A DNA stretch of 64,000 bases. Source: Sphagnum magellanicum (Eukaryota > Streptophyta > Sphagnopsida > Sphagnales > Sphagnaceae). The position numbers and the translations under genes are program-made. This document shows positions 22,471 through 64,000 of this stretch, in pieces (within the stretch, counting starts at the first letter, position 1; every line of letters begins with the position of its first letter). The notes beneath the pieces were generated by a model. The model was not told the DNA's origin and did no database searches. It worked only from the letters and a program-made list of their open reading frames with translations. The stretch covers positions 18,848,001-18,912,000 of the forward strand of contig CM038910.1 of the NCBI GenBank assembly GCA_021904315.1, in the 5' to 3' direction.

Positions 22471-22489
22471 AGTGTTTAATGAATAATAT

Positions 22490-38605: not shown

Positions 38606-38695
38606 TTAATTTTTTTGGGCATTGGGCTCGTTCTTTGCTCCTACTTTCTGATCATCATGGTTTTCTGGCACAGGTTTTGGACCCTTTGCAAAATG
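38606..38695 (-). pseudogene. Possible terminal exon of the DRC11/IQCA1 relic
   Basis: Acceptor TTGTTGTGCAG at the right border, phase 0, 29 codons ending in TAA at 38606-38608: HFAKGPKPVPENHDDQKVG then a charged tail. DRC11/IQCA1 proteins end in short charged tails, but the sequence is too poorly conserved to be sure. Confidence 0.4.
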
Positions 38696-39382
38696 CTGCA
38701 CAACAATCCATGTGATGAAATGAGGGAAAGTTTAGTATTAAGGTAAAGCAACAGGAGAAATTTCCTAGTGTATTTGAAGCAGTGATCCTTTGTCAGTGTT
38801 TTACTGTAGCTAAAGTGCCCATAAAGCATAGGAAGATTTAGCCAAATTTGGCTAAAAACAGACATGAAAGTTACAAAATATAAACAATATGTTTTTAGCT
38901 ACCTACTTGAACCAAATATAGCAATTTGGTTTCTATTAAATTCTAAGAATTATTTCATTTTAGAATTTAATTTCACTTTTTGGCTATATTTTGCCAGTTT
39001 AAAAAAAGGCTTTTGGAGGGCCTAACCTCATATCAGTGAATATCCCTAAAAGACGAAGGATCTTAAGCCTGCCATTTAGGAGTGGGAGGGATCTTAGGTC
39101 TACTTATATGTGTAAGGTCTGTCATGCTCCTAACTACCTAGTAGGCTTAAGATCCTTCTCACTGCTACTGCCTAGCCCAAGGCCCCTTATTGCAGAATGC
39201 CCCACCCTAGGGCTTTACACTACAATATTTCCACCAATGATAATACACACACAAATCTATAGCTTTTGTAACTGACATTCAACATCCATCTTGTTTATTA
39301 AGAAGCTCTTTGAAGCTGGAATCAGATCTCACCAAAGGCTAGCCAGGTCACAAACATGGATGCAAGGAAAGTTTGCACTTAC

Positions 39383-39472
39383 ACAACAAGCTGTGTGAAG
39401 TGTCAGGTCAATAGGGTTGAATTTGTGGAAATGATGAAGAAACTCATCTTCCAACAAGGGTTCTCTTGCAAC
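39383..39472 (-). pseudogene. DRC11/IQCA1 exon: C-terminal helical segment
   Basis: 90 nt, acceptor TACCCCACAG, donor TGT|GTAAGT, phase 0. Encodes VAREPLLEDEFLHHFHKF then NPIDLTLHTACC, continuing directly from QCVRK and aligning with the family's P-L-x-x-x-E-F-I-x-x-x-x-x-x-N-P-V segment. Confidence 0.78.
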
Positions 39473-40201
39473 CTGTGGGGTACACAATTCCAGAAGTTCT
39501 AGATTCACATCAGGTTTAGTTTTTTGGTTGGATGTGCACAAGATCTGTACTTCTAATCACTGAAAAACTTTGAGAGAAAGATTGCATTCTAAGTGTTGAA
39601 CACAGCCTTTTTGTTCTCCATTGTGTCATGTAGCCATAGTGGTGATCTTCCATAAGTGGATTTAGCCAAATCTAGCTATGAAAAAAATGTGTCAGTAAAA
39701 TTTTTTAGCATCCTTCTATGTTTTTGGCTACCTACACCTAGAACTTCATGTCGAATCTGGTGATTTTCTCTTAATTCAAATAAAATCTAAATTTGATTAC
39801 TAGAAAACACAAAAAATGACTTTTTTCTGCAGCTTGGAAAAAAAAGAAGTCAACTGTTGCAAATTTGCCAACCAAAAAACGCTAGTTCAACATCACTAAG
39901 AATCAATTCACTGTGGGCTTGTGAACAAACATCACATTAATTTGCTAGTACCCAACTGCAGAACAGTTACATCTGCAGCAGTAGCTAGTTTGTATAGTGA
40001 TCTATGTGTGAACAAAGGGGCCAAAAGAGAACCAGTTCCAAAACTCTGTTGTCATATTGAGTTGAAGAGTGATGATGCAATAAATCCTTGATTTTGAAGC
40101 AAAAGAATTATACAAGTCCATCTGCACCACTCCTAAACAAACAAGTTTTTGAAGGATTGTGCAGAACTTTCACATTGTGATAGACCTATTACAAAATGTA
40201 C

Positions 40202-40477
40202 CTTGCGGACACATTGTGGAGTTAGGACTAATTTACAAATGTCATCTATAGCACCAATGCTGTAGTCAACAGAAAGAGTGGCAAGTGTGGAGACACTAAA
40301 ATGGTGAGTAACAGCTCCTACATATCGTTCGATAAGACCTCGCCACAATGCCAACCTAGCTCCGTAGTCTGGATATGGACAATACACCCATTGTTAAAAG
40401 AACGTGCAAATATCCTTAGTGATCTTTGATGGTCCCTTCTTGCCTTGTAAATTCTGCACACTAGGCCATTCTTCATC
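40202..40477 (-). pseudogene. DRC11/IQCA1 exon: AAA lid region with premature TAA
   Basis: 276 nt (92 codons), acceptor TTTGGAG, donor AAG|GTACAT. Encodes DEEWPSVQNLQGKKGPSK, DICTFF, stop (40394-40396), QWVYCPYPDYGARLALW, GLIERYVGAVTHHF, VDYSIGAIDDICKLVLTP, QCVRK. The P-x-P-D-Y-x-x-R-x-x-L-W motif is diagnostic for this AAA subfamily. Confidence 0.88.
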
Positions 40478-40601
40478 CTCCAAAAATTGTTCATGAAATA
40501 AAAGGAGCATCTGATGTAAAGTGCAGTGTAGCAAAATTTATTAATTTTTAAAATTTATTTCTAGGAGTTTTGTTGATCCAAATAATGGGACAACAATATA
40601 A

Positions 40602-40745
40602 CTGAGGATTACTAGTGGTGCCTAAGAAAAGCACACAGTTGCCCGGTAAAACTGCACTGATTTCCTTCATGAAAAGCTTCTTGATACGGTTTGGTTTATC
40701 TTTGAGGCCATATAACTTGATCACCTTCTTGTCCGTCACAAACAC
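40602..40745 (-). pseudogene. DRC11/IQCA1 exon: post-Walker B segment, donor lost
   Basis: 144 nt, acceptor GCCCTCTAG. Encodes VFVTDKKVIKLYGLKDKPN, RIKKLFMKEISAVLP, GNCVLFLGTTSNPQ, matching the family's P-x-R-I/L-K-K, V-L-x-x-G-T-T. The next bases are TTATAT where a GT donor is needed to reach the following phase-0 exon, so this splice site appears mutated. Confidence 0.85.
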
Positions 40746-40960
40746 CTAGAGGGCGAAGAAAACACATCAACTGTAGAGAGATGGCAACAGCTGGGTGCTC
40801 TCTCATCTTTCCTCATCTGCTCACTCACTTGATCGACTTCAACTTTGGGTGTCATTGGTTGGTGGTTCTGAAATACCCCGTTCTAGTGCTGATGAAATCT
40901 TGCTATTAAAGAATGCTTATTGAAAGCTAGCTTCCAATTTTGAGGGTTGAAAGAACAGAC

Positions 40961-41126
40961 TTGATTAACATGTTCAACATAAATTACAGAAGGTGCCATA
41001 ATTTTGCCAATCTTGAAACACATGTAACAACATGGCTATTGGTTTGGCTCCTGTGTATTTTCCATCTATTACACTTGATGACAAGTTTATAAATGTTCTG
41101 CCCACTGGCCTACAAACTGCATGAGC
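40961..41126 (-). pseudogene. DRC11/IQCA1 exon: after Walker A through Walker B region, with a 2-nt deletion
   Basis: Starts after CATTTGCAG with AHAVCRPVGRTFINLSSS, DGKYTGAKPIAMLLH, then changes frame at about 41018-41021 to FKIGKIMAPSVIYVEHVNQ. Exon length is 166 nt where phase 0 at both ends requires 168, so two bases are missing. The Walker B segment reads PSVIYVEH, lacking the usual D-E/D-D acidic pair. Donor is the weak CAA|GTCTGT. Confidence 0.87.
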
Positions 41127-41382
41127 CTGCAAATGATCATTGAATTTAAAATCTTAGTGATCATTTCTATGTGTCCATCCAGCCAATCACCAAACATAAA
41201 AGAGGACTAGAGTTTAGTCTGCTTCCCTATGAGCACACCTCCATTTTGACACAAAATAATACTAAAATGTTGTTCAGAGACATTTGAAAATTCATCAAAT
41301 AGTTGGTATTGCTCATCTATGCTATAGAAGATCTAGTCTCATGATATGGATATAGATCACATTCAGTTTCTTCAGCCAAAAC

Positions 41383-41404
41383 ACACACACACACACACAC
41401 ACAC
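41383..41404. repeat. (AC)n microsatellite
   Basis: Eleven AC dinucleotides directly between the P-loop exon and the next exon of the DRC11 relic, within its intron. Confidence 0.9.
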
Positions 41405-41505
41405 AATATTGTACAGAACGTGACATGATACAGAATTTCTTTGTACTTTGTTCTACTAACAAAACTATGATAATGAGATTCAGAAGATGAATTATAGGTA
41501 CTCAC

Positions 41506-41624
41506 CAAAAGGGTTTTGCCTGTGTGAGGCCCTCCAAATAAGAGAAGTGACTTCACAATTGCATTCTTGTTCACTAGTACTGAGGCCAATGGCAACACCC
41601 CATATTCAATCACTAACCATTTGC
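41506..41624 (-). pseudogene. DRC11/IQCA1 exon: AAA P-loop
   Basis: 119 nt, acceptor TTTGGCAG, donor TTG|GTGAGT. Encodes WLVIEYGVLPLASVLVNKN then IVKSLLLFGGPHTGKTLL. The Walker A motif GGPHTGKT is intact, and the preceding Y-G-V-L-P-L-A-S matches the family's Y-G-I-L-P-L-G-S. Confidence 0.9.
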
Positions 41625-42680
41625 CTGCCAAAGGTCAGTCAAGGGTGGGTTTCATGGGTGGTTTACATTAATTCTGCAACAAGCTTCTTTTTAACTTCTA
41701 TGTTATTGATCTTTAGTTTCTCTTTTTTGTGTTTCTCTTCTTGTTATATGCATGCACATATAAAAAACCTTCAGAATAATATCTATGATTCTATGAAAGA
41801 AAGGAAAGGGGTAAGGTGGCCCAAATAGCTGACTTAATTGGGAAGCAACATGACTCTGATTTTGGTTGAGAAATTGATTAGCAGATTATGAAAATGAAAT
41901 TTGACAACCCAAATTTTAAGACAAAACCAATAAGGCTGGTTCTTTTCATGACCATATGGTTGTCTGAAATGGCTCTTATAACCAAATTCAGACTGGTGCA
42001 GGAGTTCTCTGATAGGTACCAGTTTCCTCCTGGTATTTCAATTTTGCAGACACCCATATACCAGGACCAGACAAGTGTTGGGCAGTTTTTTGATTCTGGA
42101 CCAAACCTCTCCTGGAGGTCATACCACATATAAAGAGGTGAATAGCTAGGGTGTTCTTAGGAATGTCATAGTGTGATTCACATTAATTACATCATGGGTG
42201 CCCTCACAACTTTTTTATTTATTTTAATGGAGCCATATTGATTGGCTCACCTGCAATTGTTTTGGAACTTTGGGGCATGCCCCCAATAGAAGTACCTCTT
42301 TGGACCCCCAGTTGCAAAATAGAAACAAATGTGCACCCTTGCATTATAGTTTATTTATAGGGGAGTTTGAACTTTGGGCAAAGCATATGGGTTAAACACC
42401 CAGGTGCTATTGGCTGACTTGCAACATTTCTACAAAAACAACATCATCATCATCTTAAATTATTATTATTTCATTCCTGGTTTATTTCCTTCCCATTCTT
42501 GGTGGGCAGAAAGCTGCAGTGTCAGACTCAGCAGAGGGATGGTGTGCAGCTGGCAACCTCGGAGCTTCTAGGGTGTCCATCCCCATGGACGACCGGACGG
42601 ATGGACAGAGGGACGACGGGACGGATGACGGGACGCACGGATTCAGGGGAGGCTTCATTTCTCATCTCGACGTCCTTTAC

Positions 42681-42720
42681 TAGTAATAGTGTGGGCCCCG
42701 TGCATAATGCACAGGTGTGT
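42681..42720 (-). repeat. Helitron 3' terminal hairpin, copy 1
   Basis: CCGTGCATAATGCACAGG palindrome at 42698-42715. On the minus strand it is followed by GGGCCCACACTATTACTAG, where the canonical CTAG end is altered to CTAT or displaced. Confidence 0.75.
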
Positions 42721-44002
42721 TATATACCCCGTAGAGCCCCCCCCCCCCCCCCGCGGTCCTTCCCATTTTCCACTTCGGTTCTTTACCCCGTCGACCCCCC
42801 CCCCCTTCCGCCGGTCCTTCCCATTTTCCACTTCGGTTCTTTACCCCGTCGCCCCGGTCCTTCGCATTTCCCACTTCGGTTCTTTAACTTGTCGATCCCC
42901 CCGGCCGATCCTTGGCATTTCCCACTCCGGTTCTGTAACCCGTCGATCCCCCCGGCCGGTCCTTGGCATTTCCCACTCCGGTTCTTTAACCCGTTGATCC
43001 CCCCGGCCGGTCCTTCGCATTTCCCACTCCGATTATTTAACCCGTCGATCCCCCCCGACCGGAGCATATGGGTATTACAAAAAAATCTAATACCCACCCC
43101 ACATTGGTATTCTTTTTGTCCACAACAACAGTTTCTGAAACCAAATTCCTTAGGTAGGTGCAATGGCAAGGATCCCCAGCTTTAATTCATCATACATGGT
43201 GATTATTTATGCACCGTCCAGCAAGCAAGCAGCACATTGAGGATGATGATGTATCTAAATAGGGACATGGATGGAGGGCCATTCCTGGTTTATTTCCTTC
43301 CCATTCTTGGTGGGCAGAAAGCTGCAGTGTTAGACTCAGTAGAGGGATGGAGGGATGGTGTGCAGCCGGCAACCTCGGAGCTTCCAAGGTGTCGACTGGA
43401 CGGATGGACAGATGGACAACAGGATGGATGACGAATGAATGGATGAAAATATATATTTGTTCTGTTTGGACGGATGGACTGGACGGATGACAGGATGGAC
43501 GACCGGACGGATTCAGGGGAAGCTTCATTTCTCCGTCGATCCCCTCGGCCGGTCCTTCGCATTTCCCACTCCGATTATTTAACCCGTCGATCCCCTCGAC
43601 CGGAGCATATGGGTATTACAAAAAAATCTAATACCCACCCCACATTGGTATTCTTTTTGTCCACAACAACAGTTTCTGAAACCAACCAATGGTGCGCTAA
43701 ATATGTTCCCATAGGTTCCCCAAACTCTTGTTCCCGGCTTAAAAACCCCGGCTGGATGTAAGAGGGAGAGGAGGAGGAGGAGGAGGAGGAGCAGCAGCAG
43801 AAGCCACTTTTGGTGGCAGCACATGGAAGGTCACCCACGCCTTTTCCGTTGCCACTGTTCGTCCAGCTTAAAAACCCAGAACCAATGAGTCCGGCTGGAT
43901 GGATGACGGGACGGATTGAGGGGAAGCGGACCAAATGCACGGATTTAAGGGAAGCTTCATTTATGCGCGAATATGCGACCATCCTTCCTTTACTATAAGT
44001 AA
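42684..44002 (-). mobile_element. Composite non-autonomous Helitron E (about 1.3 kb)
   Basis: From the 5' region at 44002 (ACTTATAGTAAAGGAAGGAT on minus) to the 3' hairpin at 42698-42715. It contains a (GAG)n/(CAG)n tract at about 43767-43803, two copies of the TACAAAAAAATC...TTTCTGAAACCAA block (43076 and 43616), an internal 5'-type region at about 43380-43530 and six 52-bp units at 42736-43058. It is probably itself a fusion of two or more copies. Confidence 0.6.
42736..43058. repeat. 52-bp GC-rich minisatellite, six units (Helitron E)
   Basis: Units as in Helitron D, preceded by a C16-18 run at about 42737. Open frames of 102-228 codons crossing it are proline-rich repeat translations. 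Confidence 0.88.
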
Positions 44003-44035
44003 CTAGTGTGGGCCTCGTGCATAATGCACAAGTGA
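44003..44035 (-). repeat. Helitron 3' terminal hairpin with CTAG end, copy 2
   Basis: Minus strand: palindrome GTGCATTATGCAC, then GAGGCCCACACTAG, then T. This fits the Helitron rule of a short hairpin about 10 nt before CTRR and insertion before T. Confidence 0.85.
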
Positions 44036-44052
44036 GTTATATACCTCGTAGA

Positions 44053-44413
44053 GCCCCCCCCACCGGTCCTTCCCATTTTCCACTCCGGTTCTTTACCCCG
44101 TCGACCCCCCCCCCTTCCGTCGGTCCTTCCCATTTCCCACTCTGGTTTTTTAACCCGTCGAGCCCCCCCGGCCGGTCCTTCGCATTTCCCACTCCGGTTC
44201 TTTAACCCGTCGAGCCCCCCCGGCCGGTCCTTGGCATTTCCCACTCCGGTTCTTTAACCCGTCGATCCCCCCCGGCCGGTCCTTGGCATTTCCCACTCCG
44301 ATTATTTAACCCGTCGATCCCCCCGGCCGGTCCTTCGCATTTCCCACTCTGGTTCTTTAACCCGTTGATTCCCCCCAGCCGGTCCTTCGCATTTCCCACT
44401 CCGACTATTTAAT
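44053..44413. repeat. 52-bp GC-rich minisatellite, seven units (Helitron D)
   Basis: Longest array of the family unit GGTCCTTCGCATTTCCCACT plus CCGGTTCTTTAACCCGTCGA plus C7-9. On the minus strand it translates to repeats of NRSGKCEGPAGG and KEPEWEM types in different frames; there is no start or gene context to support translation. Confidence 0.9.
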
Positions 44414-44523
44414 GATTCTGTGATTTTGTTATTTTTTATATACCCTAACCCAGTGATTCTTTTGATTCTGAAAATTTTCAAATACCCAGAACCAATGAGT
44501 CCGGCTGGATGGATGACTGGACG

Positions 44524-44558
44524 GTGTGAGCCCCGTGCATAATGCACGGGTGTGTTAT
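44524..44558 (-). repeat. Helitron 3' terminal hairpin, copy 3 (perfect palindrome)
   Basis: CCCGTGCAT-A-ATGCACGGG at 44532-44550, 9-bp arms with a one-base loop. The expected CTAG is missing; the sequence runs into GGTGTGAG and then the next element. Confidence 0.78.
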
Positions 44559-45432
44559 TTCAACAATGTTTGGTTGATGTTTTTGGTTTTTTAAAAAAAC
44601 TTTTCTTTTCAAACAACTGTCGATCCCCACTCCGCCAGTCCTTCACATTTCCCACTCCGGTTCTTTAACCCGTTGATCCCCCCCACCGCCGCGGTCCTTC
44701 ACATTTCTCACTCCGGTTCTTTACCCTGTCGACCCCCCCCGCCCGATCCTTCGCATTTCCCACTCCGATTCTTTAACTCATCGATCCCGTCAAGTAGTGG
44801 TAGCAGTGGTTGATGATACATATTACAAAATTACAACTACAAACTACATTTCCAAAACCTCTCTATATACCACATTGCTAGGTTTTTTTGGGGGGAATTT
44901 ATTTTCATTGTTTCAACCTGAAATCTATTTTTTCTACACATTCTAACATTTTTTGTGGAAAGGAATGGCCCTAATCGCCAAATTTTGGCATTCCATATAT
45001 TGGAACTATGGGAACAATGTAAGGTAGTCTACATATAACAAAGGATATGGCACTCCCGCCCCAAAATAAAAGCACAGAGGTGCTTCCCTTTGGCCCCCTT
45101 TATAGTTTATATATATAAGTTTTTTTGGGGGCACATCAAAGAGCCCGATGAATTGGCACCCACACTGGTAAAAACCCTGACATTTTTTAGGATGCTTCTA
45201 ACCCTGGTAAATATGGCATCCCTAATATTAAATAAGTACCCCCAGTTTATATGGTGACGAACAGTTTTGGAAATAGAAATTTCATGCAGCCAATGGGAAG
45301 GCTCAGCATGCATGTTCTGTTTGGATGGATAGAGGACGGATGACGGGACGGATTCAGGGGAAGCCGACCAAATGCACGGCTTCAAGGGAAGCTTCATTTG
45401 GTCAGCCTCACGAATATGCGACCATCGTTCCT
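44524..45432 (-). mobile_element. Non-autonomous Helitron C (about 0.9 kb)
   Basis: The 5' part abuts the CTAG of Helitron B (AGGAACGATGGTCGCATATT on the minus strand). It ends at the perfect hairpin CCCGTGCATAATGCACGGG (44532-44550). It shares 44560-44990 with Helitron A (47560-47990) nearly base for base, including three 52-bp units at 44620-44788 and the GATACATATTACAAAATTAC block at 44814. Confidence 0.72.
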
Positions 45433-45465
45433 CTAGTGTGTGCCCCGTGCTTAAGGCACAGGTGT
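45433..45465 (-). repeat. Helitron 3' terminal hairpin with CTAG end, copy 4
   Basis: CCCGTGCTTAAGGCACAGG; minus strand continues GGCACACACTAG and then the 5' part of Helitron C. Confidence 0.82.
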
Positions 45466-45483
45466 GTGTTTGAAATAAATCAA

Positions 45484-45710
45484 ACTCCGGTTCTTTAACC
45501 CGTCGATAGCCCCTCGGCCGGTCCTTTGCATTTCTCACTCCGGTTCTTTGACCCGTTGATCCCCCCCGGCCGGTCTTCCGCATTTCCCACTCCGGTTCTC
45601 TAACTGTCGATCCCCCCCCCGGCCGGTCCTTCGCATTTCCCCGGCCGGTCCTTTAACTCGTTGATCCCCCTCGCCCGGCCCTTCGCATTTCCCACTCCGG
45701 TTCTTTAATG
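45484..45710. repeat. 52-bp GC-rich minisatellite, about 4.5 units (Helitron B)
   Basis: Same unit as at 47620, with an internal partial unit around 45628-45660 where two CCGGCCGGTCCTT words are only about 20 bp apart. Confidence 0.85.
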
Positions 45711-46339
45711 ATTCTGTGATTTTGTTTTTTTTATGAAATACCGTAACCCAGTGATTCTTTTGATTCTGAAAATTTTCAAATACCCAGAACCAATGGTTCT
45801 TTCATTCTGTTTTTTTTCCTCCAAATAGTCAAAGCATATGGGTATTACAAAAAAATCAAATACCCACCCCACACTGGTATTCTTTTTGTCCACAACAACA
45901 GTTTCTGAAACCAACCAATGGTGCATTAAATATGTTCCCATAGGTTCCCCAAACTCTTGTTCCCAATAGCACCACACATGACACCTTATGTTAGTCACAT
46001 CTTTTGTCAAAAGGTATATACTTGTCTTTACGTCAGTCATATCCTTTGTCGTAAGGTTGTTTTTTTTCTTCTTTCGGGTTTATTTCCTTCCCATTCCGTA
46101 GTCTTTACGTCAGTCATATCCTTTGTCCAAAGGTTTTTTTTTCTTCTTCTTCCTGGTTGATTTCCTTCCCATTCCGTAGCCACTGTCCGTACCGAGCAGA
46201 GTCAGGGGAGGCTGTCAGCTTGTGTTGAGACCTGGAAAAGCTCCTTCATTTTGCCACTCAGTGTTGTGATCCTTTAGCTCATCTTCTTCCCCGCTTCAAT
46301 GCTGAAGGTGTCCAAAACACAACAAAAAGTTCCAAAAAC

Positions 46340-46640
46340 CTGAGAGAAATCAACACCCACAAAAATTACAAGAATTGAGACAAATAAACACAGTCACAAA
46401 TTGCAACAAAAACTGAGACAAAAATCAACACACATAAAAATTGCAACAAAAACTGAAACAAAAATTGACAGACATAAGATTTGCAACAAAAACTCAGACA
46501 AATCAACTCACATCAAAATTGCAGTAACTGAAAGAAATCAATATACTAAAAAATTGCAACAAAAATTGAGAGAAAATAAAAAACACATAAAATTTGCAAA
46601 AACTGCAACAAAATCACACACACACAAAATCACTTGACTC
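46340..46640. repeat. A-rich minisatellite, unit about 40 bp
   Basis: About seven imperfect units combining AAATTGCAACAAAAACTGAG, ACAAAAATCAACAC and ACATAAA. The 78-codon open frame across it is simply the translation of this repeat. Confidence 0.75.
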
Positions 46641-46699
46641 CGATTGGACATAGAAAAGAACAAAACAAAAGGAAGAGCTCAGGAAAGTCCAATATATGT

Positions 46700-46806
46700 A
46701 CCGTCCTCAATATCCACATGTAATAACTCTCTAGCAGCTTCCTCTAGGTGCAACTAATCCTGATACTCCAGAAACTCTTCAAGATCGGCGGAATCTTGAT
46801 CTCGCG
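46700..46806 (-). pseudogene. Coding-like fragment inside Helitron B (possible gene capture)
   Basis: On the minus strand a 35-codon acidic stretch reads DQDSADLEEFLEYQD, TAG, LHLEEAARELLHVDIEDG. Its composition and helical periodicity look protein-coding, unlike the surrounding minisatellites. Helitrons commonly capture pieces of host genes, but I do not recognise the donor, and the fragment is too short for confidence. Confidence 0.35.
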
Positions 46807-47523
46807 TTTGATCTTACCATGCCATCATCAACACCCAGGCACAAAAAAGTAACCCTTGTCAGATATTAATGCAAAATACTATTATAGCAGGCATAAAATC
46901 TTTGAAGAACCTGTCTCAACCATGTAGACTTCAAATTTCCGAACGGCAGAGCCAACAAAAAAGAAAGAAACCCTCCTCACCCCCATTGCACAGTTAGGGC
47001 TTCATAGTCGCAGTAGTCTTTGGGACATTGGACATTCACGGCCGCACACACTCGGGCCTTGGACATAACACCCGGCCGTCGTATCAACTTTCCTTCCTTT
47101 TGAGCTAGTGACGGAAGGCTGAAGATGCCTGAGATGAAGTAGTTCTTTGATAGAGCAATCTGGTTGTGGTTGTGATCAGTTTCCGTCTTGGTGGGCAGAA
47201 AGCTGCAGTGTCAGACTCAGGAGAGGGGTGGTGTGCAGCCGGCAACCTCATCGGTGCATTACAAAATTGACCGGAAAACAACAGAAAAAAACATTATTTA
47301 TGCAACATCCAGCAAGCAAGCAGCACATGGAGGATGATGATATATCTAAATAGGGACATGGATGGAGGGCCATTCCTGGTTTATTTCCTTCCCATTCTTG
47401 GTGGCCAGAAATTTGCTGTGCAGTGTTAGATGTATTTTAAAAAAATATGGGAAAGATAACACACCTGTCCACACACACGGATGGACAGAGGAGGGATGGC
47501 GGGACGAATGACGGGATGCGCGG

Positions 47524-47558
47524 GTGTGAGCCCCATGCATAATGCACGGGTGTGTTAT
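47524..47558 (-). repeat. Helitron 3' terminal hairpin, copy 5
   Basis: CCCATGCATAATGCACGGG, one mismatch in the stem; joined directly to GCGCGGGATGACGGGACG-type 5' sequence of the next copy without CTAG. Confidence 0.75.
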
Positions 47559-47619
47559 TTCAACAATGTTTGGTCGATGTTTTTGGTTTTTTAAAAAAAC
47601 TTTTCTTTTCAAACAACTG

Positions 47620-47790
47620 TCGATCCCCACTCCGCCAGTCCTTCACATTTCCCACTCTGGTTCTTTAACCCGTCGATCCCCCCCCTCGCCTCGGTCCTTC
47701 ACATTTCTCACTCCGGTTCTTTACCCCATCGACCCCCCCTCACCCAATCCTTCGCATTTCTCACTCTGATTCTTTAACCCGTCGATCCCG
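47620..47790. repeat. 52-bp GC-rich minisatellite, three units (Helitron A)
   Basis: Units of the form GGTCCTTCGCATTTCCCACT, CCGGTTCTTTAACCCGTCGA and a C-run, between the terminal hairpin and the shared subterminal block. Same unit as the arrays at 42736, 44053, 44620 and 45484. Confidence 0.88.
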
Positions 47791-48031
47791 TCAAGTAGTA
47801 GTAGCAGTGGTTGACGATACATATTACAAAATTACAACTACAAACTACATTTCCAAAACCTCTCTATATACCACATTGCTAGGTTCTTTTTGGGGGAATT
47901 TATTTTCATTGTTTCAACCTGAAATCTATTTTTTCTACACATTCTAATATTTTTTGTGAAAAGGAATGGCCCTAATTGCCAAATTTTGGCATTCCATCTT
48001 GCCGAAAACCGGGTACCATTACGTCAATCAC

Positions 48032-48873
48032 AACCCGTATGGTTCCTTGCACGTATGCACTCCACCAGGCAGGCAACCTGGCTCCCTCCCTCCTTCCCTC
48101 GCTCCCGTGTGTGTGTCTCGTTCTCTTTCTCTCCCCGGCGGTTCTTTATATTTTTCCAATTGCTGCAAAAAGAAAAAAAAAAGATAAAAAAGGCCCAAGA
48201 AGAAAGTGAGAGCAAGGAAAAAAAATGGCCCAAGAAAAAAGTGAGAGCAAGGAAAAAGAAAAACATGATAAGAAAAAGGCTCAAGGGAAAAAAAAAAAAA
48301 AAAAAAAAAAACTACTGACCAAGTAAAAAAAGAGAGAAAAAAAAAGGCCCATGAAAAAAGTGAACCCGTATGGTTTCGTCCACGTATGCACTCCACCGGG
48401 CAGGCAACCTGGCTCCCTCCCTCCTTCCCTCGCTCCCGTGTGTGTGTCTCGTTCTCTTTCTCTCCCCGGCGGTTCTTTATATTTTTCCAATTGCTGCTAA
48501 AAGAAAAAAAAGAGGATAAAAAAGGCCCAAGAAGAAAGTGAGAGCAAGGAAAAAAAATGGCCCAAGAAAAAAGTGAGAGCAAGGAAAAAAAAAAACATGA
48601 TAAGAAAAAGGCTCAAGGGAAAAAAAAAAAAAAAAAAAACTACTGACCAAGTAAAAAAAGAGAGAAAAAAAAAGGCCCATGAAAAAAGTGAACCCGTATG
48701 GTTCCGTCCACGTATGCACTCCACCGGGCAGGCAACCTGGCTCCCTCCCTCCTTCCCTCGCTCCCGTGTGTGTGTCTCGTTCTCTTTCTCTCCCCGGCGG
48801 TTCTTTATATTTTTCCAATTGCTGCTAAAAGAAAAAAAAGAGGATAAAAAAGGCCCAAGAAGAAAGTGAGAGC
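48032..48873. repeat. 330-bp tandem repeat, about 2.5 copies
   Basis: Units start with AACCCGTATGGTTCC-type text at 48032, 48363 and 48692 (spacing 331 and 329). Each has a pyrimidine-rich half (CTCCCTCCCTCCTTCC and GTGTGTGTCTCGTTCTC) and a purine-rich half with long A runs and repeated GGCCCAAGAAGAAAGTGAGA. Copies are almost identical, indicating recent amplification or homogenisation. Open frames across it on both strands are low-complexity artefacts. Confidence 0.9.
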
Positions 48874-49020
48874 CATCCACTGGATGGCTGAACACCGGTT
48901 TCCATCAGATCACAGTGGGCCAGAGCGAGCGGCTTCAGGGCCGGCTTCATCGCGCGGCTTCAGGGGCGACTTCATCGCGCGGAGTTAAGGGAGGCTTCAT
49001 CCTTCTTTTAATATAAGAGA

Positions 49021-50563
49021 TAACCAGCAAGGCCAAAATTTGGAATACTCCCCCCAGCACTGACTTGGAAAATAGAGTTTTGGCAGTACTTGCCCTGATA
49101 AAAAATAATGTCAAAGAACCAACAACGAATTGGCAGCTCATTCATGACAAGTGGCTGTCCTTCAAGGGTTTTGAAATACCTGGAACCGGCAGTTCTTTTG
49201 ATTCTGCTGTTTTCAAATAACCAGAACAGGCTGGTTCTTTGTTTCTGATTTTTTCTCAAATACCTGGAACTGGCAATTCTTTGAAAAATCAAAGAACCAC
49301 CCAACACTGGAACAGACTGTTACAAAATATACCAGAGCAACACTGGTTCTAACCTGAGCCATACTTATCCATCTCCCAAAGCTCAATGGGGTCAAAATTT
49401 GTGCCACGCAATTGTTCTTGGGGGATAAACTCATCAAAGGTATGTGCACAACAAACTTGCCTTCTTTCACAAGCTCAATGTGTATAGACTCCATGAATTG
49501 TTTCTCTGACAAGTCCTTCTTGTGCTTGGGTTTTTTCTTTGTCTGGTGGTGGAGCTTTTGCTTCAGCCTCCTTCTTTTCCTTCGCTCTTGCCACCTTGTC
49601 TTTTTTCTCCTGTACAAGAAACGCCTGCCCATTTCTGAGAGTTCAAGTACTATTTCATAAAGTTACTCATCAGATTCTTCTTTTGTACAACACCCAGAAT
49701 CTCAAGTCTCCTAGTGGTCCAGCATTTTGAGGAACTTTGTATAAACAACATTGCATGATGAGTCTTTTGTCTCCTAGTGCACCTGGCTAAGTGTTGTTGA
49801 ATTTAACATCTCTAGAATGGGGGCAAAAACATATATAGATTTAAAGAAGAAACTATATGTTGGTCTATACATAAAAAGGGGTTGGAGGTTAGAACATTCC
49901 TCAATTTCAGTGCTACACATAAAAAGAATGATTTTACACTAATCTAGTTCTACTTTGGCAAGCTTCAATCTCAAGCTTCAATATAGCAACCTTCTAATTT
50001 TACAAAGCTCCCTTGTCCAGTCAAGTGTACTCGGTGCAAGGAATTGGAGAAGGTGGGTGTTATTTGTTTGTTGTTCACAAAATCCAACATGAATTTTTTC
50101 ACACATTGATCTACAAATCGTTTGTCCAGTCAAAGTGTACTTTGTGCAAGGAATTGGAGAAGGACTAGGTGGTGGTGGTGGTGTTCTGCTGCTGCTGCTG
50201 CTGCACAAAACCAACAATTTTCACACAATGCACAAATCCTAGGATCAGAACAGCAAGCCTGCAGATTAGTGGGAATATTACAGCTCCATCCAGGTTGTCT
50301 CCATCCTGATCATGAAAGGACTTGTAACCATCTTTCCTTGAATCTGTGTTTTGTGGAAGAGGAAGGCAGCAAAAGAAGAGTCCCACAAGGTTTAAGGAGA
50401 GCTCAAATCTCTCTTGGTCAGGAGAGGAGAGAGAGGAAGCTAATGGAATCAGGAGCCTGTCCCAGAACAGGGAATTCAGATACAGAGACTTTGGGATGTT
50501 AGATCAGAACTGTTTGAAGCTCCAGGAACACATGAGATCTGATCTGGGGTCTCGTATTCTACT
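49021..50563. other. Spacer between the Helitron array and the small ORF
   Basis: The first 300 bases repeat the words GGTTCTTTGATTCTG and CCAGAACC that also occur inside Helitrons B and D, so the array probably inserted into or beside an older copy. (GGT)n at 50170-50184 and (GCT)n at 50187-50203 microsatellites. A direct duplication of TTGTCCAGTCAA(A)GTGTACT...GCAAGGAATTGGAGAAGG occurs at about 50012 and 50122. Confidence 0.5.
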
Positions 50564-51214
50564 ATGAGGATGAAAGTGACATGGACAAACAGTGTGAGAA
50601 CAATCCTGACAAGGGCAGTGGTACAGTTCCAGAGGAGAGCATCTAGTATAAACTATGGGCCAGCTGAGAGACATGATCAGCATCCCAAACCTGATGGTGG
50701 TAGTGCAGACTTGAAGAAATCAAATGGTGAAGTGGTAGCTGAGAGACATCATGATGATCCCACAAGCAGTTGTCCAGGTATGACAACAAAGTCAAATGGT
50801 GAAGTGGTTGAGCAATCATCAGGCACTGTGGCCAGCAGTGATGGAACCAGCGTACCTGATGAGCCCTTGAAAATGATGCATCAGGAGCCTGACACAGGAG
50901 TTCAGATAATTCCTTTGCTGGAGCCATGGGAGTTACCACTCTGGCCCATAGCCGGAATGGCAAGTTTAACTGCAGGGCTAGCATTTGTGATTATGTATAA
51001 AGAATTTCTGGATGAGTCCCCAGCTGCAGTGCTAATTGACAAGAGGATGAAGGTGGTGGGTGGTCAGACACCGCAGGCTGAGCTAGATGGCAGCCCAGAA
51101 TGGACTTGGAAGAAGAAGGCTCAGAAGTATGCACAAGAGAGTCCATTGCAGCATCTGTCAAAGAAGGGGAACAGCATATCTCCAAATGAGCATGATCATC
51201 AGCTGCACAAGTAA
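50564..51214 (+). CDS. Hypothetical protein with possible mitochondrial presequence and one membrane segment (216 aa)
   Basis: Single open frame, antisense to and within the gap of the DRC11 relic. An in-frame TGA at 50540-50542 lies upstream, so the start is one of two ATGs (50564 or 50570) unless an upstream exon exists. The N terminus is basic and amphipathic without acids (KVTWTNSVRTILTRAVV, FQRRASS), typical of mitochondrial targeting. Then comes a disordered stretch with an imperfect repeat KSNGEVV at about 52-58 and 76-82. A hydrophobic segment LWPIAGMASLTAGLAFVIMY lies at about 126-145, followed by a charged C-terminal tail (WTWKKKAQKYAQESP). I do not recognise the family. Base composition is even and non-repetitive, and a possible poly(A) signal (GCAATAATTC) lies near 51465. 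It could be a real small gene or a chance ORF. Confidence 0.5.
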   Translation: MRMKVTWTNSVRTILTRAVVQFQRRASSINYGPAERHDQHPKPDGGSADLKKSNGEVVAERHHDDPTSSCPGMTTKSNGEVVEQSSGTVASSDGTSVPDEPLKMMHQEPDTGVQIIPLLEPWELPLWPIAGMASLTAGLAFVIMYKEFLDESPAAVLIDKRMKVVGGQTPQAELDGSPEWTWKKKAQKYAQESPLQHLSKKGNSISPNEHDHQLHK

Positions 51215-52072
51215 TGGATGCAGGAACCTGGCTGCAACTGTACACTGATGTGCGCCTGCAGATAAGAGCACTATTGCAGTTCTTGAGACAGCAACTTTAA
51301 GGATTCCATACCCAAGCCATCTGACTAAACCTTCCACCTGTATCAGGTGATTGTACTCATGAGACTGTGATCTGGCCCTGTCTGATCAATCAGTTTTGCA
51401 TTTTCCTCTGCCTCATGATGAATGAGGTGCAATAGTGTTGTACCTTGTGAAAATGTGCGAAATGCAATAATTCTCAAATGGGTAGTACGGTGGTGACAAC
51501 TGTTCAAACCTGTTGTTTCTCAGCTTTGAGTTATGCCTTGAGTTCTTTCTCTTTGCCTTCCTTATTGGCTTCAACAGAATTTTGATTGCCACTTTCTTAT
51601 CTTGTGCAAGCTTCTTCTTCAGTCAGACAAGAAGCTCTCAAGAACCCATATCAACATCCAACCTCACCTGTGCAGAAATTTATATGAAATCTTTAGTTTG
51701 AAACACTGGGCTCGCCTAGTGTAGGTGGTCTTTCTGTTCATGTTTGTCTTAATAATCTCTCAAAGCAAAGCAACTAAGAATTTGAATTTTCTTACTCTAG
51801 TGCAAACCTTCCACTATCAATTTGGACTTCAAACTAATTAAGTTCCAAGGTCTGTAGTTTGGAGCCAAGATCTCATATGCATTTAGCTCTCTCCATTTTC
51901 TAAGAAATGTGTTTTTGATGTGTTTCAAGGTGTTTGTAGCATATTGAATTTTATTTTTTTTGGGGCTGAAGTTTTAAAGTGATATGTCTAACCAAGTCCT
52001 GTAAGGTTATCAGTAATGCATCTAAAGTCCCTTCTAGAGCTTGACAGATTCACTTCTATAGGAGTTTTGTAC

Positions 52073-52454
52073 CTGCTCAAAGACCAAGGGACGTTAAGTG
52101 TTTTTAAGAACATCAGGGATGAACTTTTGCTCATGATTATCAAAATCATCTTTGTCATGCCAATTGTTGAGATAAGCTTCACAGGCAGCTTTGACATGAT
52201 GCCAAAAGGCATTGGGACACTTGGGTATAGGCTCACCACCTTCTTCTTCATCCTGAGGCTCGGGCATGTGAATGCCCTCTTTTGTTTTCTTTTTCTTCCT
52301 CCCACTATCTTTCTCCCCTTTCTTCTTTTTCTCATCTTCAGGTCTCCACATTGCCAGGGGTGGATCAATGATGTCTTTGCTTCCTCCAGCCCCTACCTTG
52401 GGAAAAGGAGGGTAGAAATTTGTATCCAGGTCTCAATTCTTATTCAGCCACATG
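52073..52454 (-). pseudogene. DRC11/IQCA1 exon: Lys-rich linker and W-x(3)-KDD segment, with two stops
   Basis: 382 nt with a pyrimidine-tract acceptor (CCTCCATTAG) and donor CAG|GTACAA. Encodes MWLNKN, stop, DLDTNFYPPFPKVGAGGSKD, then a Lys/Glu-rich stretch (KKKKGEKDSGRKKKK), then YLNNWHDKDDFDNHEQKF, stop, RPLVFEQ. The family shows the same order: a W-containing helix, a short F-P-x-Y-P...GGS segment, a Lys-rich run and a W-x-x-R/K-D-E-S-x-N motif. The first stop is explicable as CGA to TGA. Both stops lie in an otherwise uninterrupted conserved frame. Confidence 0.85.
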
Positions 52455-55054
52455 CTAATGGAGGGACACCCAATTAGAGGTATTCCATAATTTCTCCATG
52501 TATAGTATATATATGGAAAAATTAACTATGGAATGGCTAACAATAACTTGTCTGGCCAGTTCATGATCCAACTCACACCAGGGAAGAGTTTCAGTCAATG
52601 GATTCTGTGAGGCAAGAAGTGAATAGGACTTATTACTGGCATAATCTTGTGCATCTCTTGGGCTTCCATATCCATCACCTCTTTCTTGATATCCAGAATT
52701 GCATTTGTTTCTTCTTGCTTGTTTATCTCTCAGATCCCCCATCTCCTCTCAGCATTCTCTTCCAAATCAATTTGTGGGTCTTGTGGGTTCCTTGGAATGC
52801 GATTATTCATATCTGTAAAGAACATTCCATTGGGGTGTCACAGAGTTTGAGCTTTGAGGGTCCTCAAAATTTCCTTAGTCATCTAAACCCACACCACAAT
52901 AAACAAGGGTTTTGAGTTTCCATACATTTTGTTTGAATGTAAATGAATTGTAGACAGGTTGAGGGTGGAGGTTTGAGAATTAAAGCTCTTACGAATCAAA
53001 GTCATCTCATCAACACACAGTAAGCAGCCTCCCAATGAAACCTCGAGTCCTTTTGTCAATTTCACAGTCAATGCCAACAAATGTGGTTCAAATTAATACT
53101 CAAAAGTAGCATACACTTTGCATATGCAAGGATGTCTATGATAGTCAGGAGTTTTGTCATCACAAATTGAAAAATCTCTAAACTGGGAAAATTTCAACAG
53201 TCACAGAGCCTTTGTTTGTTTTTGTCATTTCATTAAAAGAGCATCCAACCACAATTTTGGGTCTGTATTTATCATGACAAACATGAAGAGCTATGAAGCA
53301 AACACCTTCAAGTTCAAATGGTGTACAGCTGATAGGGGTATCAGTTGAAGGATACATGCATTGCATAAATTGGGCAGCACTGATTTTGGAGTGAGATTTG
53401 ATGCCTTGTCACTGATTCTCAAGTTCTTGTTCTTTTACAGCCCTGCAATCCCACTGAAGTTACATTAGTTACACCTTCACTACTCGATTGTTGTGTAGGA
53501 TTCAATTCAAGTCAAAAGAGGTCTGTTGCTTTTGGGCACCTTCAAAAAGCACATGGTGCATGATTAACCCAAAAAAGCACCATACAGTAAAGCCCCAAGG
53601 TAGGGTATTCCCAAAATAAGAGCACTTGGATGAGGCAATAGCAGCGTCCAGCCCCACATTTTGGGTGTGTCCCTCACACCCATCATATAGCATGAGGTGA
53701 GCATTAACATGAACTTAAACAAATGTAGATCACAAGGCATAGGAGGGGAAGGGTTCTTACACTACTCCTTGGGAGTGGGAGAGAAATCATGCTTACTTAT
53801 AATTTCCCTCCCACCCTTAAGGAGTAGGTGTAAAATACGTCCTCTTTTCTAGGAGGGATACTCATGGATATAAGATGCCCTCCAAATACACTAGGAAATA
53901 TCTCTGAGTGCTTTAAGCTTTAGTGTGTGTTTGCACAACTTGACATGAATGATAACTACCCACACACCATGCTTTGATAAATTTTCCATGTATATGTGTC
54001 ATCAAACTTTGAATCAAAAACAATGAGCTCTGTACAAAAACTATGGCCACAGCTCAACACACACTCATGAAATTTATTTATGAGATGAATATCATGCAGG
54101 CTCAAAACAATAACATTCTTTGAGACATCTGACAGAGGAAATGACCTACTTCTGTTTGATAATGTCGACAATCAAGAATCTGTCTTGTCTTCCCCTCTCC
54201 TCAGCCTGCAGCATGGATCAATAAGATCCAAATGAATCATTCCAAACCATCAAAACCCTATGAGACAAAGCAAAATTGCTACCGCCTCGGATTACATCTC
54301 AATTCTCTTGCTTGGCTCAACATCATGGACCTTCCTTTGTCTTCTTCCATTCATTGTTAGCAAATGTTTCTGAGATTCAAATCTGCAAATGATGTGTTCT
54401 TTAGTCCTACAAGTTCTTAGGACCTACTTGTCCTCTTAGAATTATGACAATCAAGACAACATATGTAAAACAGCATGGCAGATTGGTCTACCACCCATCA
54501 TTCAGTTTTGAAACAGAACTCTCTTTGGGACAATAGCAACTGTACTACTAGTCATATGCACTTGTGAATTTAAAAAGCACATTTTGCACCTGCAGGAGTG
54601 AAACAGACTCAAATCCAGTCATTGGTGGAGGCAGCTCTATGATTTCTCTCCTATTTGTACGGTTTTGAAAATCCTGTGCTCCTTTGTCTTCAGCTTCTTT
54701 TATTGCAGTCTCGTTCTGCCTCAGCTAAGGCAATTTCCCTTTTCTACCAAGGCACCTTTCACAAGACTTAGTTTCTGGATTTGGAGGATCCAACAAGACC
54801 CATTTGCAGCTCTGACAATTTCCTTTCAGGAATTTCAACACCCATTGACCAAGTTTAGGCTCTAATTGATTTCAATTTACTTAATTTTCAGTTTCCCAAA
54901 TGACCACCAGATGTCATGCTCCCAGTATGGCCACTTGCAATTTAGCACATGAATTTGAACCATCACAAAAACAAAGCAGAAGATACTTTAAAAGTTACTT
55001 TTGAGTACACAATTTTGGCATGCAGACAACTACAATTGTTGCTCACAAGCTTAC
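52455..55054. other. Presumed intron of the DRC11 relic plus unassigned sequence
   Basis: The IQ-motif exon(s) should lie here. A minus-strand segment at about 52990-53070 (RTRGFIGRLLT, and in another frame VDEMTLIRK) vaguely resembles the IQ helix and following E-E-M-x-F segment, but this is too weak to call. A GC-richer block at 53560-53900 resembles the dispersed block at 31690-31960. Confidence 0.35.
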
Positions 55055-55153
55055 CAAATACTCATCACAGGCTTTGAGGTATGTAGCAGTATCACTCGTG
55101 AGAAAATGTGCTGGAACTATGTCCAAAGCATCTAGACCTAATGTCATTTCTGC
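55055..55153 (-). pseudogene. DRC11/IQCA1 exon: segment after the N-terminal helical region
   Basis: Acceptor TGACCCAG, donor TTG|GTAAGC, 99 nt, phase 0. Encodes EMTLGLDALDIVPAHFL then TYLKACDEYL, aligning with the family's D-L-K-L-x-P-x-x-L-x-V-P-x-P-x-Y-F-type segment. No stop in this exon. Confidence 0.65.
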
Positions 55154-56316
55154 CTGGGTCATGAAAATTGCAATTACCATGAATTCCTGCCTATTTCGTT
55201 TTTGACTCTTCATGAACCCAGTAACTACCACTACTATCACTTGGGCTGATGATATATGTAGCTTCTTTTAGGAGGGTTGGTCCACCCAACAAAAATTGCA
55301 AATTTTGGCTTCTAATAATCCTATCACTTATGCCACCTTATTGTTACATTTTTTGATTACAGGGTGGGTTACATCTTCAGCAACACATTTCTGCAAAACT
55401 CGAGAAGTGGCTTAAATTATCCCATGAGTTCACTGTGTAGCAAAGTTTTTGAATAGAAAATTGTGTAGATGGTTGTGCCTTTAATTTTTATGACAGTAAT
55501 TTGTAATATTTCCAATGTTTGGATATGAATTGACTTGCCAGTATATCATCAAAGTTGAAGTATTGCTTATTCCCATTTAGTCCCACCATCCACTGCCACC
55601 AAACAAGCCAATCATCACAAACAGAGTCTGAAACTTGTACAAATCTTTTCTATCTTCTTGTTTCAAAACTAAAGAATCCTGACTCTGAATCCCTTGGCAA
55701 CAGTGTGTGGGTGGTTGCATCAGGGCTTACATTAGTGAGAATGTAGAGAAATCCTTACTCCTTTTACTTCCAACATGTGTCCAATGCATGCTTCCAATGC
55801 TTTCTTTACATCCCACCTTTTTTGAGGATGCGCCATCTGTGCTCACAACCAAACATAGAACTGGTAAGACTTGTTCTCCATTCTCTCTAGTCAGGAGCAA
55901 AATTGGAACAAGTTCACTAATCACAATTTGTTGCTTCAAAGAGCTTGTCCTGCAAATGCTTGAAACTAGCAGTTCTATTTTATTTGCATTGGACACTATA
56001 CACTACTGCAAGGAATCATGACCACCCCAGCTGAATAAGTAAGAGTGCACTAAGATTATGCTGGCAACATTTGTGTGAGTCAGAATAAGAATGGATGGCA
56101 GCTTATGACAATCAGTAGAAAACACATATCACACTTACAATTGCCAAATAGGTAGCTCTCCAAGTTTATTGCACATAGGAGAAGCAATGTACATAAAATT
56201 CACTACTTAGACAACTTCAGGTGTTTCTGGAGCTAGTAAAAAAAATCTCGGAAGTAAAGCTGATCAGCAAATGTCTTGCAAGAGCTCTCAATAAACTGGG
56301 GTTACAATGTACGAAC

Positions 56317-56391
56317 CTGATCATAACAATCCTCCAATTTTCTGTAAGCTTGGATATACCATATGTAGACTTTGGAAAATTGTGGCAGTGT
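56317..56391 (-). pseudogene. DRC11/IQCA1 exon: N-terminal region
   Basis: Flanked by TTCCTTGCAG acceptor and CAG|GTTCGT donor, 75 nt, phase 0. Encodes TLPQFSKVYIWYIQAYRK followed by LEDCYDQ, matching the conserved Y-x-K-Y-I-Q-x-F-R-K-L-E-x-C-Y-D-Q block near the N terminus of DRC11/IQCA1. Confidence 0.85.
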
Positions 56392-56601
56392 CTGCAAGGA
56401 AAAAAAATATGACATGATATTCATCACTTCAGATGAGTTCAAAGCTCTGTCTCATAAAGTATCCTGCACTATAGGCAGGAAAAAAAAACACAGTCTTTCC
56501 AGACATTTTGACAGAAAACTGTAAAATTGGACAGGGAGCCACCAGACATGGGACGATTAACCTAGATCTCATTTTTTTGGTTTGCATGTGCACCCATTCC
56601 A

Positions 56602-56754
56602 GGGTTTTTCTGGCCAAGCCATGCTATGCAGCACAACCATCATGTGAACGTAAACAATGATTCTTTTGTTATTATAAGGGTTTTTCTGGCCAAGCCATGC
56701 TATGCAGCACAACCATCATGTGAACGTAAACAATGATTCTTCTGTTGTTATATG
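56602..56754. repeat. 76-bp tandem duplication
   Basis: AGGGTTTTTCTGGCCAAGCC through TGTGAACGTAAACAATGATTC is present twice at 56602 and 56678, with about three differences. A minus-strand frame (56672-56905) reads WLHLTGPSEWQEAILDLVEL, coding-like but unrecognised. Confidence 0.85.
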
Positions 56755-56905
56755 AGTTTTCATCTGTGAGCTTCAATCCAAGAGCAAATGAAACACACAC
56801 CATAGGCCATTCTTCAAGGTTTTTGGGGAATTCTATCTTCAAAAGTTCCACAAGATCAAGTATTGCCTCCTGCCACTCTGAAGGTCCTGTCAAATGCAGC
56901 CACAA

Positions 56906-62800: not shown

Positions 62801-64000
62801 ATTCGGGTTACCAAATCCGGTCGATCCTCAGGTTGCTGTCCGAGCAATAACGCTCTTCTGATTTCAAGCCATTGGGATTGCAAGTGAATGTAACAAACGC
62901 ATCCGGATAGCCGGTCCATCTACAAATTGCCATGGCATCTTGATAATTCTGAACCATGTGATGTGGACCTACTATGAAAGAAGATGGCAGAATGATCCTC
63001 TGTCCGATGGCAACAACGCTAGTGTCACCTGCAGCGATGGCATCTTGAAGGGCTTGATAAAGATTCGCACGAAGTTTTTTTTGATTCAGGCGTAGATACT
63101 TCAAGTGATTTTGTTCTATAACCGCATAAGCATCCACAATGTATTGTTGCTACAATCGGCCACCCCGAAGCAACGCAATGCCATCGTTGTCTCAATGTTG
63201 AAGTCGATAACCATAAAATTCCGCCATTGTCACATTACAATGCTTTCTTTGAAGCTCAGATTCTTCCACATGGTCTTCATCCAAATCTGCATCAGCAATA
63301 ACACCATTGAGCTGAATATTCGGATGTCATCCATCTTCACCGTAAGGAAATAGCAACGGATAATGTAGAGCCATGTATCAGACATGTAGTTCAGAAATGC
63401 GCTGAAACGGGCCAGCTTGTTGAGCAAGGACGACGTCACGTCTGTCTACAGCCTCAGAACCATCTCCTACCATCAATTCAGCGACTTCATTAGCCATTGA
63501 CACATTGTATCGGCGGGCATCCTTTGTTCGAGAGGCAATGAGACGCCGTTTCAGATCCATGGGAACACCTTCTGTTGCCATCATATCCCTTGCCATTTTG
63601 AACACTTTAACATGGGGATTAATATTATACATCATGGTCAACAACCAATCCAACGTCGTTGGATCAAGCGAGGGCATAACAGCATGTCGGTTTTGATGTT
63701 CGCATTTCGTATCATGAATGTACAACTGTGCAAACTATGGCCGTTGTCCTTCGACAGGACATAGGGATCAATTTTGTGATAAAGTTCACCTTGAATGCAA
63801 AAGGAGTACGGTCCAGGCCCTCTTGTTACCGACTCATCAACTTTGGCACCAAGCGAAGTGAATGCCAACACCGAATTATACATGCGAATCTAATCTCGAA
63901 ATTTGACGACATTGTTCTCTTTGCTGGTTAAAAGAACTTCCAGTTCTTGTGGTGTTGTAGGAAGATTCAGTAACAGAACTTTGCCATTTTCATAACACAG
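59890..64000 (-). pseudogene. Helitron RepHel protein (HUH endonuclease plus Pif1-like helicase), C-terminal and central parts, with stops
   Basis: Order on the minus strand: ENGKVLLLNLPTTPQELEVL near the window edge; MYNSVLAFTSLGAKVDES (63882); Helitron-like N domain FKMARDMMATEG; MALHYPLLFPYGEDG (about 63370); the Rep segment FVTFTCNP (about 62890) and, after a one-base deletion near 62872, WLEIRRALLLG; the HUH motif GLSHAHSLIFF (about 62690); the catalytic tyrosine region AVKYLFKYVYKGHD (about 62290-62250); KRGFAIGRMYYAHPTSGERY (about 61870-61815). Helicase motifs follow: I GSGGTGKT (about 61200), [21 protein letters not shown] (about 60980), [22 protein letters not shown] (about 60870), then VGVPILLLRNFNQSIGLCNG (about 60265), VI VAFVITINKSQGQTF (about 60030) and YVVISRVTS (about 59950). 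About a dozen in-frame stops and at least one frameshift make it inactive. The upstream zinc finger lies outside the window. Confidence 0.93.

What the first reader, a model, noticed from the sequence alone, without database searches (positions are those of the whole stretch)
38606..56391. Decaying gene for the flagellar protein DRC11/IQCA1
Eight or nine exons with preserved splice borders encode diagnostic segments (GGPHTGKT Walker A, YCPYPDYGARLALW, WHDKDDFDN, YIQAYRKLEDCYDQ), yet three stops, a 2-nt deletion, a dead donor and a degenerate Walker B (PSVIYVEH) disable it. DRC11 only makes sense in organisms building motile flagella, in plants the sperm. A relic preserved this well suggests either slow-evolving DNA after loss of motile sperm, or a recently inactivated paralogue in a lineage that still swims.
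Basis: partly seen in the sequence, partly recalled or inferred. Interest (0 to 1): 0.85.

Follow-up and report, generated by a model that had tools for sequence, protein, structure and literature searches.

The report
Dead ancient duplicate of sperm-tail gene
This is the wreck of an old second copy of DRC11, a gene for a part of the sperm flagellum, in a plant genome (probably a peat moss) that still has one apparently working copy; the death of a duplicate is ordinary, but this one seems to have been kept under selection for a very long time before it was lost.

Summary
Confirmed, and larger than reported. The minus strand from about 56,899 to 38,606 holds a colinear, intron-bearing relic of DRC11/IQCA1; each of the 19 exons of an open relative can be placed on it. 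The odd Walker B is not a lesion in itself.

The genome is held (439 Mb, 31 contigs). Contig C3 carries a DRC11 gene open over 19 exons (861 aa; start exon not located). C2 carries a third, younger, partly deleted copy. Dynein heavy chain, radial spoke 3 and DRC1/2 families are present.

New here: relic and C3 gene share 61% of residues and are near saturation at fourfold sites (d about 1.2), yet dN is 0.27; the stop count fits only about 0.09 neutral substitutions per site. The relic was thus a constrained second DRC11 for most of its history and died late. If the genome is Sphagnum (inferred), the pair predates both peat-moss genome duplications.

The parts
56801..56878 (-). Relic exon 1 (26 codons aligned; tblastx match reaches 56899; a 5-nt loss near its start is possible)
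56317..56391 (-). Relic exon 2, open, 17/25 residues as in the C3 gene (YIQAYRKLEDCYDQ)
55759..55836 (-). Relic exon 3, open, 17/26
55539..55592 (-). Relic exon 4, open, 12/18; followed by a GC donor shared with the C3 gene
55055..55153 (-). Relic exon 5, open
54590..54694 (-). Relic exon 6, open; 5' border uncertain
54152..54205 (-). Relic exon 7, open
53370..53441 (-). Relic exon 8; in-frame TGA at 53411-53409; borders uncertain
52994..53048 (-). Relic exon 9; frameshift near 53015; 5' border uncertain
52637..52810 (-). Relic exon 10; in-frame TGA at 52732-52730
52073..52453 (-). Relic exon 11 (WHDKDDFDN); TGA at 52435-52433, TAA at 52096-52094; no AG at the homologous acceptor position
51510..51667 (-). 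Relic exon 12; stops at 51640-51638, 51625-51623, 51533-51531; frameshift near 51574
49354..49609 (-). Relic exon 13; three frameshifts near 49543, 49458, 49366
41626..49353 (-). Relic intron 13, about 7.7 kb against 288 bp in the C3 gene, much of it tandem repeats
41506..41625 (-). Relic exon 14 (Walker A GGPHTGKT); one base short near its start
40961..41126 (-). Relic exon 15 (PSVIYVEH); 2-nt deletion near 41018
40605..40745 (-). Relic exon 16, open; its donor lacks GT
40202..40438 (-). Relic exon 17 (YCPYPDYGARLALW); in-frame TAA at 40396-40394
39383..39472 (-). Relic exon 18, open, 12/30
38606..38695 (-). Relic last exon with its own TAA at 38608-38606; first part matches the last exon of the C3 gene

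Best explanation
A non-processed pseudogene of a second, ancient DRC11 gene in a flagellate land plant, most likely a Sphagnum peat moss. Working DRC11 is an AAA+ subunit of the nexin-dynein regulatory complex on axonemal doublets (known role, not tested here). SHOWN: an exon-intron DRC11 gene is present with 8 stops, 7 frameshifts and 2 lost splice sites; a paralogue open over 19 exons is on C3, a younger wreck on C2, and axonemal gene families remain in the genome. SHOWN by calculation: relic and C3 gene are far apart at silent sites but much less in protein, and the stop count fits a short neutral phase. INFERRED: both genes were maintained side by side for most of their history; the relic lost its job late, the C3 gene carries on alone, and the relic has since collected lesions while one intron swelled with repeats.
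For: Each of 19 exons of the C3 gene placed in order on the window; 497 of 811 codon pairs with the same residue. Null scores far lower. 13 of 18 intron positions identical to the C3 gene in the aligner's output, the other 5 within 4 codons (my count). Eight stops, frameshifts. C3 gene: no internal stop in 861 codons; its six best PDB hits are the six chains found by DRC11 baits. Axonemal families. pS 0.795, pN 0.229, dN 0.273; d4 1.17 (0.86-1.80); at d = 0.58, 0 of 200 simulations had 8 or fewer stops. Relative rate 67 against 40 changes (z 2.61).
Against: No transcript data. The silent-site distance is close to saturation, so the age ratio is rough. The neutral phase rests on 8 stops and an assumed mutation spectrum. 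The relative-rate excess is not significant with 8th8_L as outgroup (43 against 31, z 1.39) and was smaller in my first alignment (59 against 46). The start exon was found in neither copy. Borders of exons 8 and 9 are uncertain in both. Some dynein rows hold stops (for instance C12 and C8:11.36 Mb), which I did not resolve. Species inferred.
Confidence: 0.85

Rival explanations
1. Relic of the only DRC11 in a lineage that lost motile sperm, preserved because its DNA evolves slowly.
For: DRC11 has no known role outside motile axonemes (recalled). Many seed plants lost flagellar genes (PMC9023351, passages seen).
Against: A DRC11 gene open over 19 exons on C3; dynein heavy chain, radial spoke 3 and DRC1/2 families present.
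Confidence: 0.03
2. A copy that died at or soon after duplication and has decayed ever since.
For: It carries many lesions, and its protein has changed more than the C3 copy (67 against 40).
Against: With fourfold distance 1.17, lifelong neutrality predicts about 30 stops; 8 are seen (0 of 200 simulations). dN 0.27 is far below the silent distance.
Confidence: 0.05
3. A young duplicate of the C3 gene, like the one on C2.
For: Same exon plan, including a shared GC donor.
Against: 61% residue identity (497/811). DNA matches to C3 are exon-sized pieces of 67-82% identity, whereas the C2 copy matches at 80-90% across introns.
Confidence: 0.02
4. Still a gene: a shortened or rearranged product is made from the open exons.
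For: Many splice signals persist, and exons 2 to 7, 16 and 18 are open.
Against: Reading-frame lesions in exons 8 to 15 and 17; exon-16 donor and exon-11 acceptor lost. No open chain takes in the whole AAA domain.
Confidence: 0.04

Closest known systems
DRC11 / IQCA1 (PDB chains 8glv_Ea, 8j07_11, 9fqr_Ok; organisms recalled: Chlamydomonas and mammals)
   Same: Same order of segments from the N-terminal LEDxYDQ..HPQKR region to the AAA domain; 249 of 698 columns as in 8glv_Ea
   Different: Interrupted by stops and frameshifts; no recognisable IQ motif even in the open C3 paralogue (Pfam finds only AAA)
Open DRC11 gene on C3:24099448-24092460 of the same genome
   Same: Same 19-exon plan; 497 of 811 codon pairs with the same residue
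   Different: No internal stop or frameshift; short introns; near-saturated silent distance from the relic
C2:12115139-12118215 DRC11 fragment of the same genome
   Same: Also a broken, intron-bearing DRC11 copy; 4 stops in the codons compared
   Different: A younger copy of the C3 gene, 80-90% DNA identity in five blocks with pieces missing

Membership tests
DRC11/IQCA1 | Best match among solved proteins is DRC11 | tested here: met
   Relic exon 17: best PDB hits 8glv_Ea, 9fqr_Ok, 8j07_11. C3 paralogue: best six of 98 hits (60 shown) are the chains that the DRC11 baits found
DRC11/IQCA1 | N-terminal region and AAA domain in one gene, in the known order | tested here: met
   Colinear exons 1-19 on the minus strand; AAA PF00004 in the C3 protein, E 2.7e-15
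DRC11/IQCA1 | IQ motif | tested here: inconclusive
   Pfam finds no IQ in the C3 protein; the region is short and poorly conserved, with uncertain exon borders
DRC11/IQCA1 | Product sits in the nexin-dynein regulatory complex | not testable with these tools
   No proteomics or structure available for this organism
Pseudogene | Several independent disabling lesions | tested here: met
   8 stops, 7 frameshifts, 2 lost splice sites
Pseudogene | No functional transcript | not testable with these tools
   No RNA data
Processed (reverse-transcribed) pseudogene | Introns missing | tested here: not met
   Introns at the homologous places
Whole-genome-duplication pair | Copies on homologous chromosomes with Ks near a duplication peak | tested here: inconclusive
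   If contig numbers are Sphagnum chromosome numbers, C4 and C3 belong to different ancestral groups, and d4 1.17 exceeds the peaks 0.406 and 0.643; the numbering is inferred

The most novel reading that the evidence does not exclude
Mosses, or a wider group of land plants, long kept two separately constrained DRC11 proteins, perhaps for different positions or waveforms in the sperm axoneme, and the peat-moss lineage lost one of them tens of millions of years ago while it kept swimming sperm. The duplication would be older than both Sphagnum genome duplications, and other mosses should still carry the second gene.
Probability: 0.45. Interest if true: 0.5.

Novelty: new member of a known kind. 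Interest (0 to 1): 0.35.

Why it matters
Gene death after duplication is common, and this is a clear case of it. It matters modestly for two reasons. First, DRC11 seems to have existed here as two long-lived, constrained copies, so one nexin-dynein subunit may have been specialised in plant sperm. Second, an open paralogue beside a relic with many lesions lets the loss be timed against peat-moss diversification. It also warns that a DRC11 relic alone is no sign of lost flagella.

Tried and rejected
Rejected: loss of motile sperm. Rejected: a processed copy (introns kept). Rejected: Walker B as a lesion. Replaced: my first estimate from the distant profile alone (549 codons, 4 stops), which undercounted lesions. 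Replaced: my early reading of exon 13 as one open frame; the paralogue shows three frameshifts. Led nowhere: Rfam and tRNA scans of the window, no hits. Flanks: in the 40 tblastx rows shown between 31 kb of C3 and the window, the matches with convincing length were DRC11 exons and one stretch that looks like a repeat; I did not test synteny further. Papers: in the listings (30 of 105 shown; 3 of 3; 12 of 114; 10 of 63) I saw none on DRC11 copies in plants, judging by titles and starts of abstracts only; others (15 of 31; 12 of 88) served for context. Not run: genome contigs and viral-contig scans, structure prediction; the DRC4 family search was unanswered and not repeated.
Full report
What is there. 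The quoted motifs lie on the minus strand. DRC11 reference sequences were taken from PDB chains. Profile search and tblastn found colinear pieces from exon 1 to the AAA domain. A spliced aligner written for this case scored 6501 on the minus strand and 843 on the plus strand, and 679-880 on 20 Markov sequences.

The genome. The window is C4:18848001-18912000 of a 438,994,042-base, 31-contig genome. A search with the C-terminal half of 8glv_Ea gave 60 matches at E up to 10, among them open DRC11 exons on C3:24093239-24096007 and broken ones on C2. A search with the joined C3 protein gave 56 matches at E up to 0.01 (53 of 77 first-look candidates were scored, so the list may be incomplete). Those that look like DRC11 fall on C3 near 24.09 Mb, C4 (this window) and C2 near 12.11 Mb; the others match only the AAA region and are, by my reading, other AAA ATPases. 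Three C3 rows report stops; the rows reach beyond the exon borders, and I place those stops in the intron edges (compare, where the joined exons have none).

The open gene. On C3, 19 exons from 24099448 to 24092460 join into 861 codons with one stop, the last codon. Splice borders are GT-AG except two GC donors, after exons 4 and 12. The borders of exons 8 and 9 come from the aligner and are uncertain. A further first exon with the start codon must lie upstream and was not located. The protein's six best of 98 PDB hits (60 shown) are the six chains found by the DRC11 baits. Its only Pfam family is AAA. Expression was not tested.

The relic. Aligned to that protein the window scores 22,300; the plus strand scores 3,189 and 20 Markov sequences 2,553-3,128. 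The 19 exons are placed in order. There are 811 codon pairs, 497 with the same residue. Stops start at 53411, 52732, 52435, 52096, 51640, 51625, 51533 and 40396. Six frameshifts lie near 53015, 51574, 49543, 49458, 49366 and 41018. A seventh, one base, lies at the start of exon 14, where the aligner had hidden it in an extra intron. The exon-16 donor has no GT, and the exon-11 acceptor has no AG at the homologous position, the next AG lying some bases inside. A 5-nt loss in exon 1 is possible. Intron 13 is about 7.7 kb against 288 bp on C3 and holds tandem arrays.

How long dead. Between relic and C3 gene pS is 0.795 (saturated) and pN 0.229 (dN 0.273), and 70 of 166 fourfold sites agree. That gives d4 1.17, bootstrap 0.86-1.80. 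Simulated neutral decay gave on average 7.4 stops at d = 0.08, 8.9 at 0.10, 15.8 at 0.20 and 29.6 at 0.58; at 0.58, 0 of 200 runs had 8 or fewer. So the neutral phase is about 0.09 (about 0.035-0.2 from the Poisson range of 8, my arithmetic), some 15% of a branch of about 0.58. Relative-rate tests: 67 changes on the relic against 40 on the C3 gene with 8glv_Ea as outgroup (z 2.61), 58 against 35 with 8j07_11 (z 2.38), 43 against 31 with 8th8_L (z 1.39, not significant). At 143 columns invariant in these three, the relic keeps 82 and the C3 gene 100. An earlier, less complete alignment gave a smaller contrast: 59 against 46, 53 against 41 and 37 against 36. The relic was thus constrained for most of its life and decayed late.

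Lineage. Dynein heavy chain AAA_6 gave 35 rows, which I group into 9 places; some rows contain stops, and one place (C8:11.36 Mb) is a single row with two. This search also rang, below the cut-off, in 3 of 14 control genomes. Radial_spoke_3 gave 4 rows at 2 places and NYD-SP28 (DRC1/2) 2 rows at 1 place; both rang in 0 of 14 controls. The assembly size equals the 439 Mb published for Sphagnum divinum (PMC9946827, part 1 of 3 of the Results read). C20 is 4,721,453 bases; the paper gives 4.7 Mb for chr. 20 but 5.4 Mb for that of S. divinum (part 1 of 2 of its section 8 read). The match is therefore strong but not exact, and the species is inferred. If contig numbers are chromosome numbers, C4 belongs to ancestral group C and C3 to group B, so the pair would predate both duplications. 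The NFD4-like neighbour in the window has its best paralogue on C15 (73%), in group C like C4, which fits. With the published Ks peaks and ages (0.406 at 102-122 Ma, 0.643 at 189-247 Ma), my arithmetic puts the inactivation near 50-60 Ma (about 20-135) and the duplication near 320-400 Ma (wide error). These dates are inference.

Third copy. C2:12115139-12118215 matches C3 in five blocks of 80-90% identity, introns included, with pieces missing. In 318 comparable codons dS is 0.17 and dN 0.091, with 4 further stop codons; noncoding identity is 0.865 (1,995 bases) and coding 0.899 (980 bases).

Literature. I saw no paper on DRC11 copies in plants in the listings, of which only parts were shown.

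Noticed in passing
G000:C20:1597865-1600171 (L018, L038): Dynein heavy chain AAA_6 exons on the small 4.72-Mb contig C20. If C20 is the V sex chromosome of Sphagnum (PMC9946827), a sperm-motility gene sits on the male chromosome; one row holds a TGA.
   Followed up: partly
G000:C2:12115139-12118215 (L016): A third DRC11 copy, a young broken duplicate of the C3 gene with introns.
   Followed up: yes
window 26791-29446 (+): NFD4 / nodulin-like transporter gene, open pieces with Pfam PF06813 and PF23262; best paralogue on C15, 73%.
   Followed up: partly
window 60305-62919 (-): Open frames of a Helitron-like element (PIF1 helicase PF05970 at 61022-61675; 'Helitron' is my reading).
   Followed up: no
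window 20001-24000: Very AT-rich stretch, 23.6% GC, with a 304-bp unit repeated about 2.4 times at 20872-21606.
   Followed up: no
window 17414-18122 and G000:C3 24105877-24106559: Several tblastx pieces of 47-68% identity shared by the two flanks; probably a repeat.
   Followed up: no
window 48032-48873: A 328-bp unit repeated 2.6 times at about 97% inside relic intron 13, so a young expansion.
   Followed up: no
window 56601-56752: A 76-bp unit repeated twice at 97% in relic intron 1.
   Followed up: no
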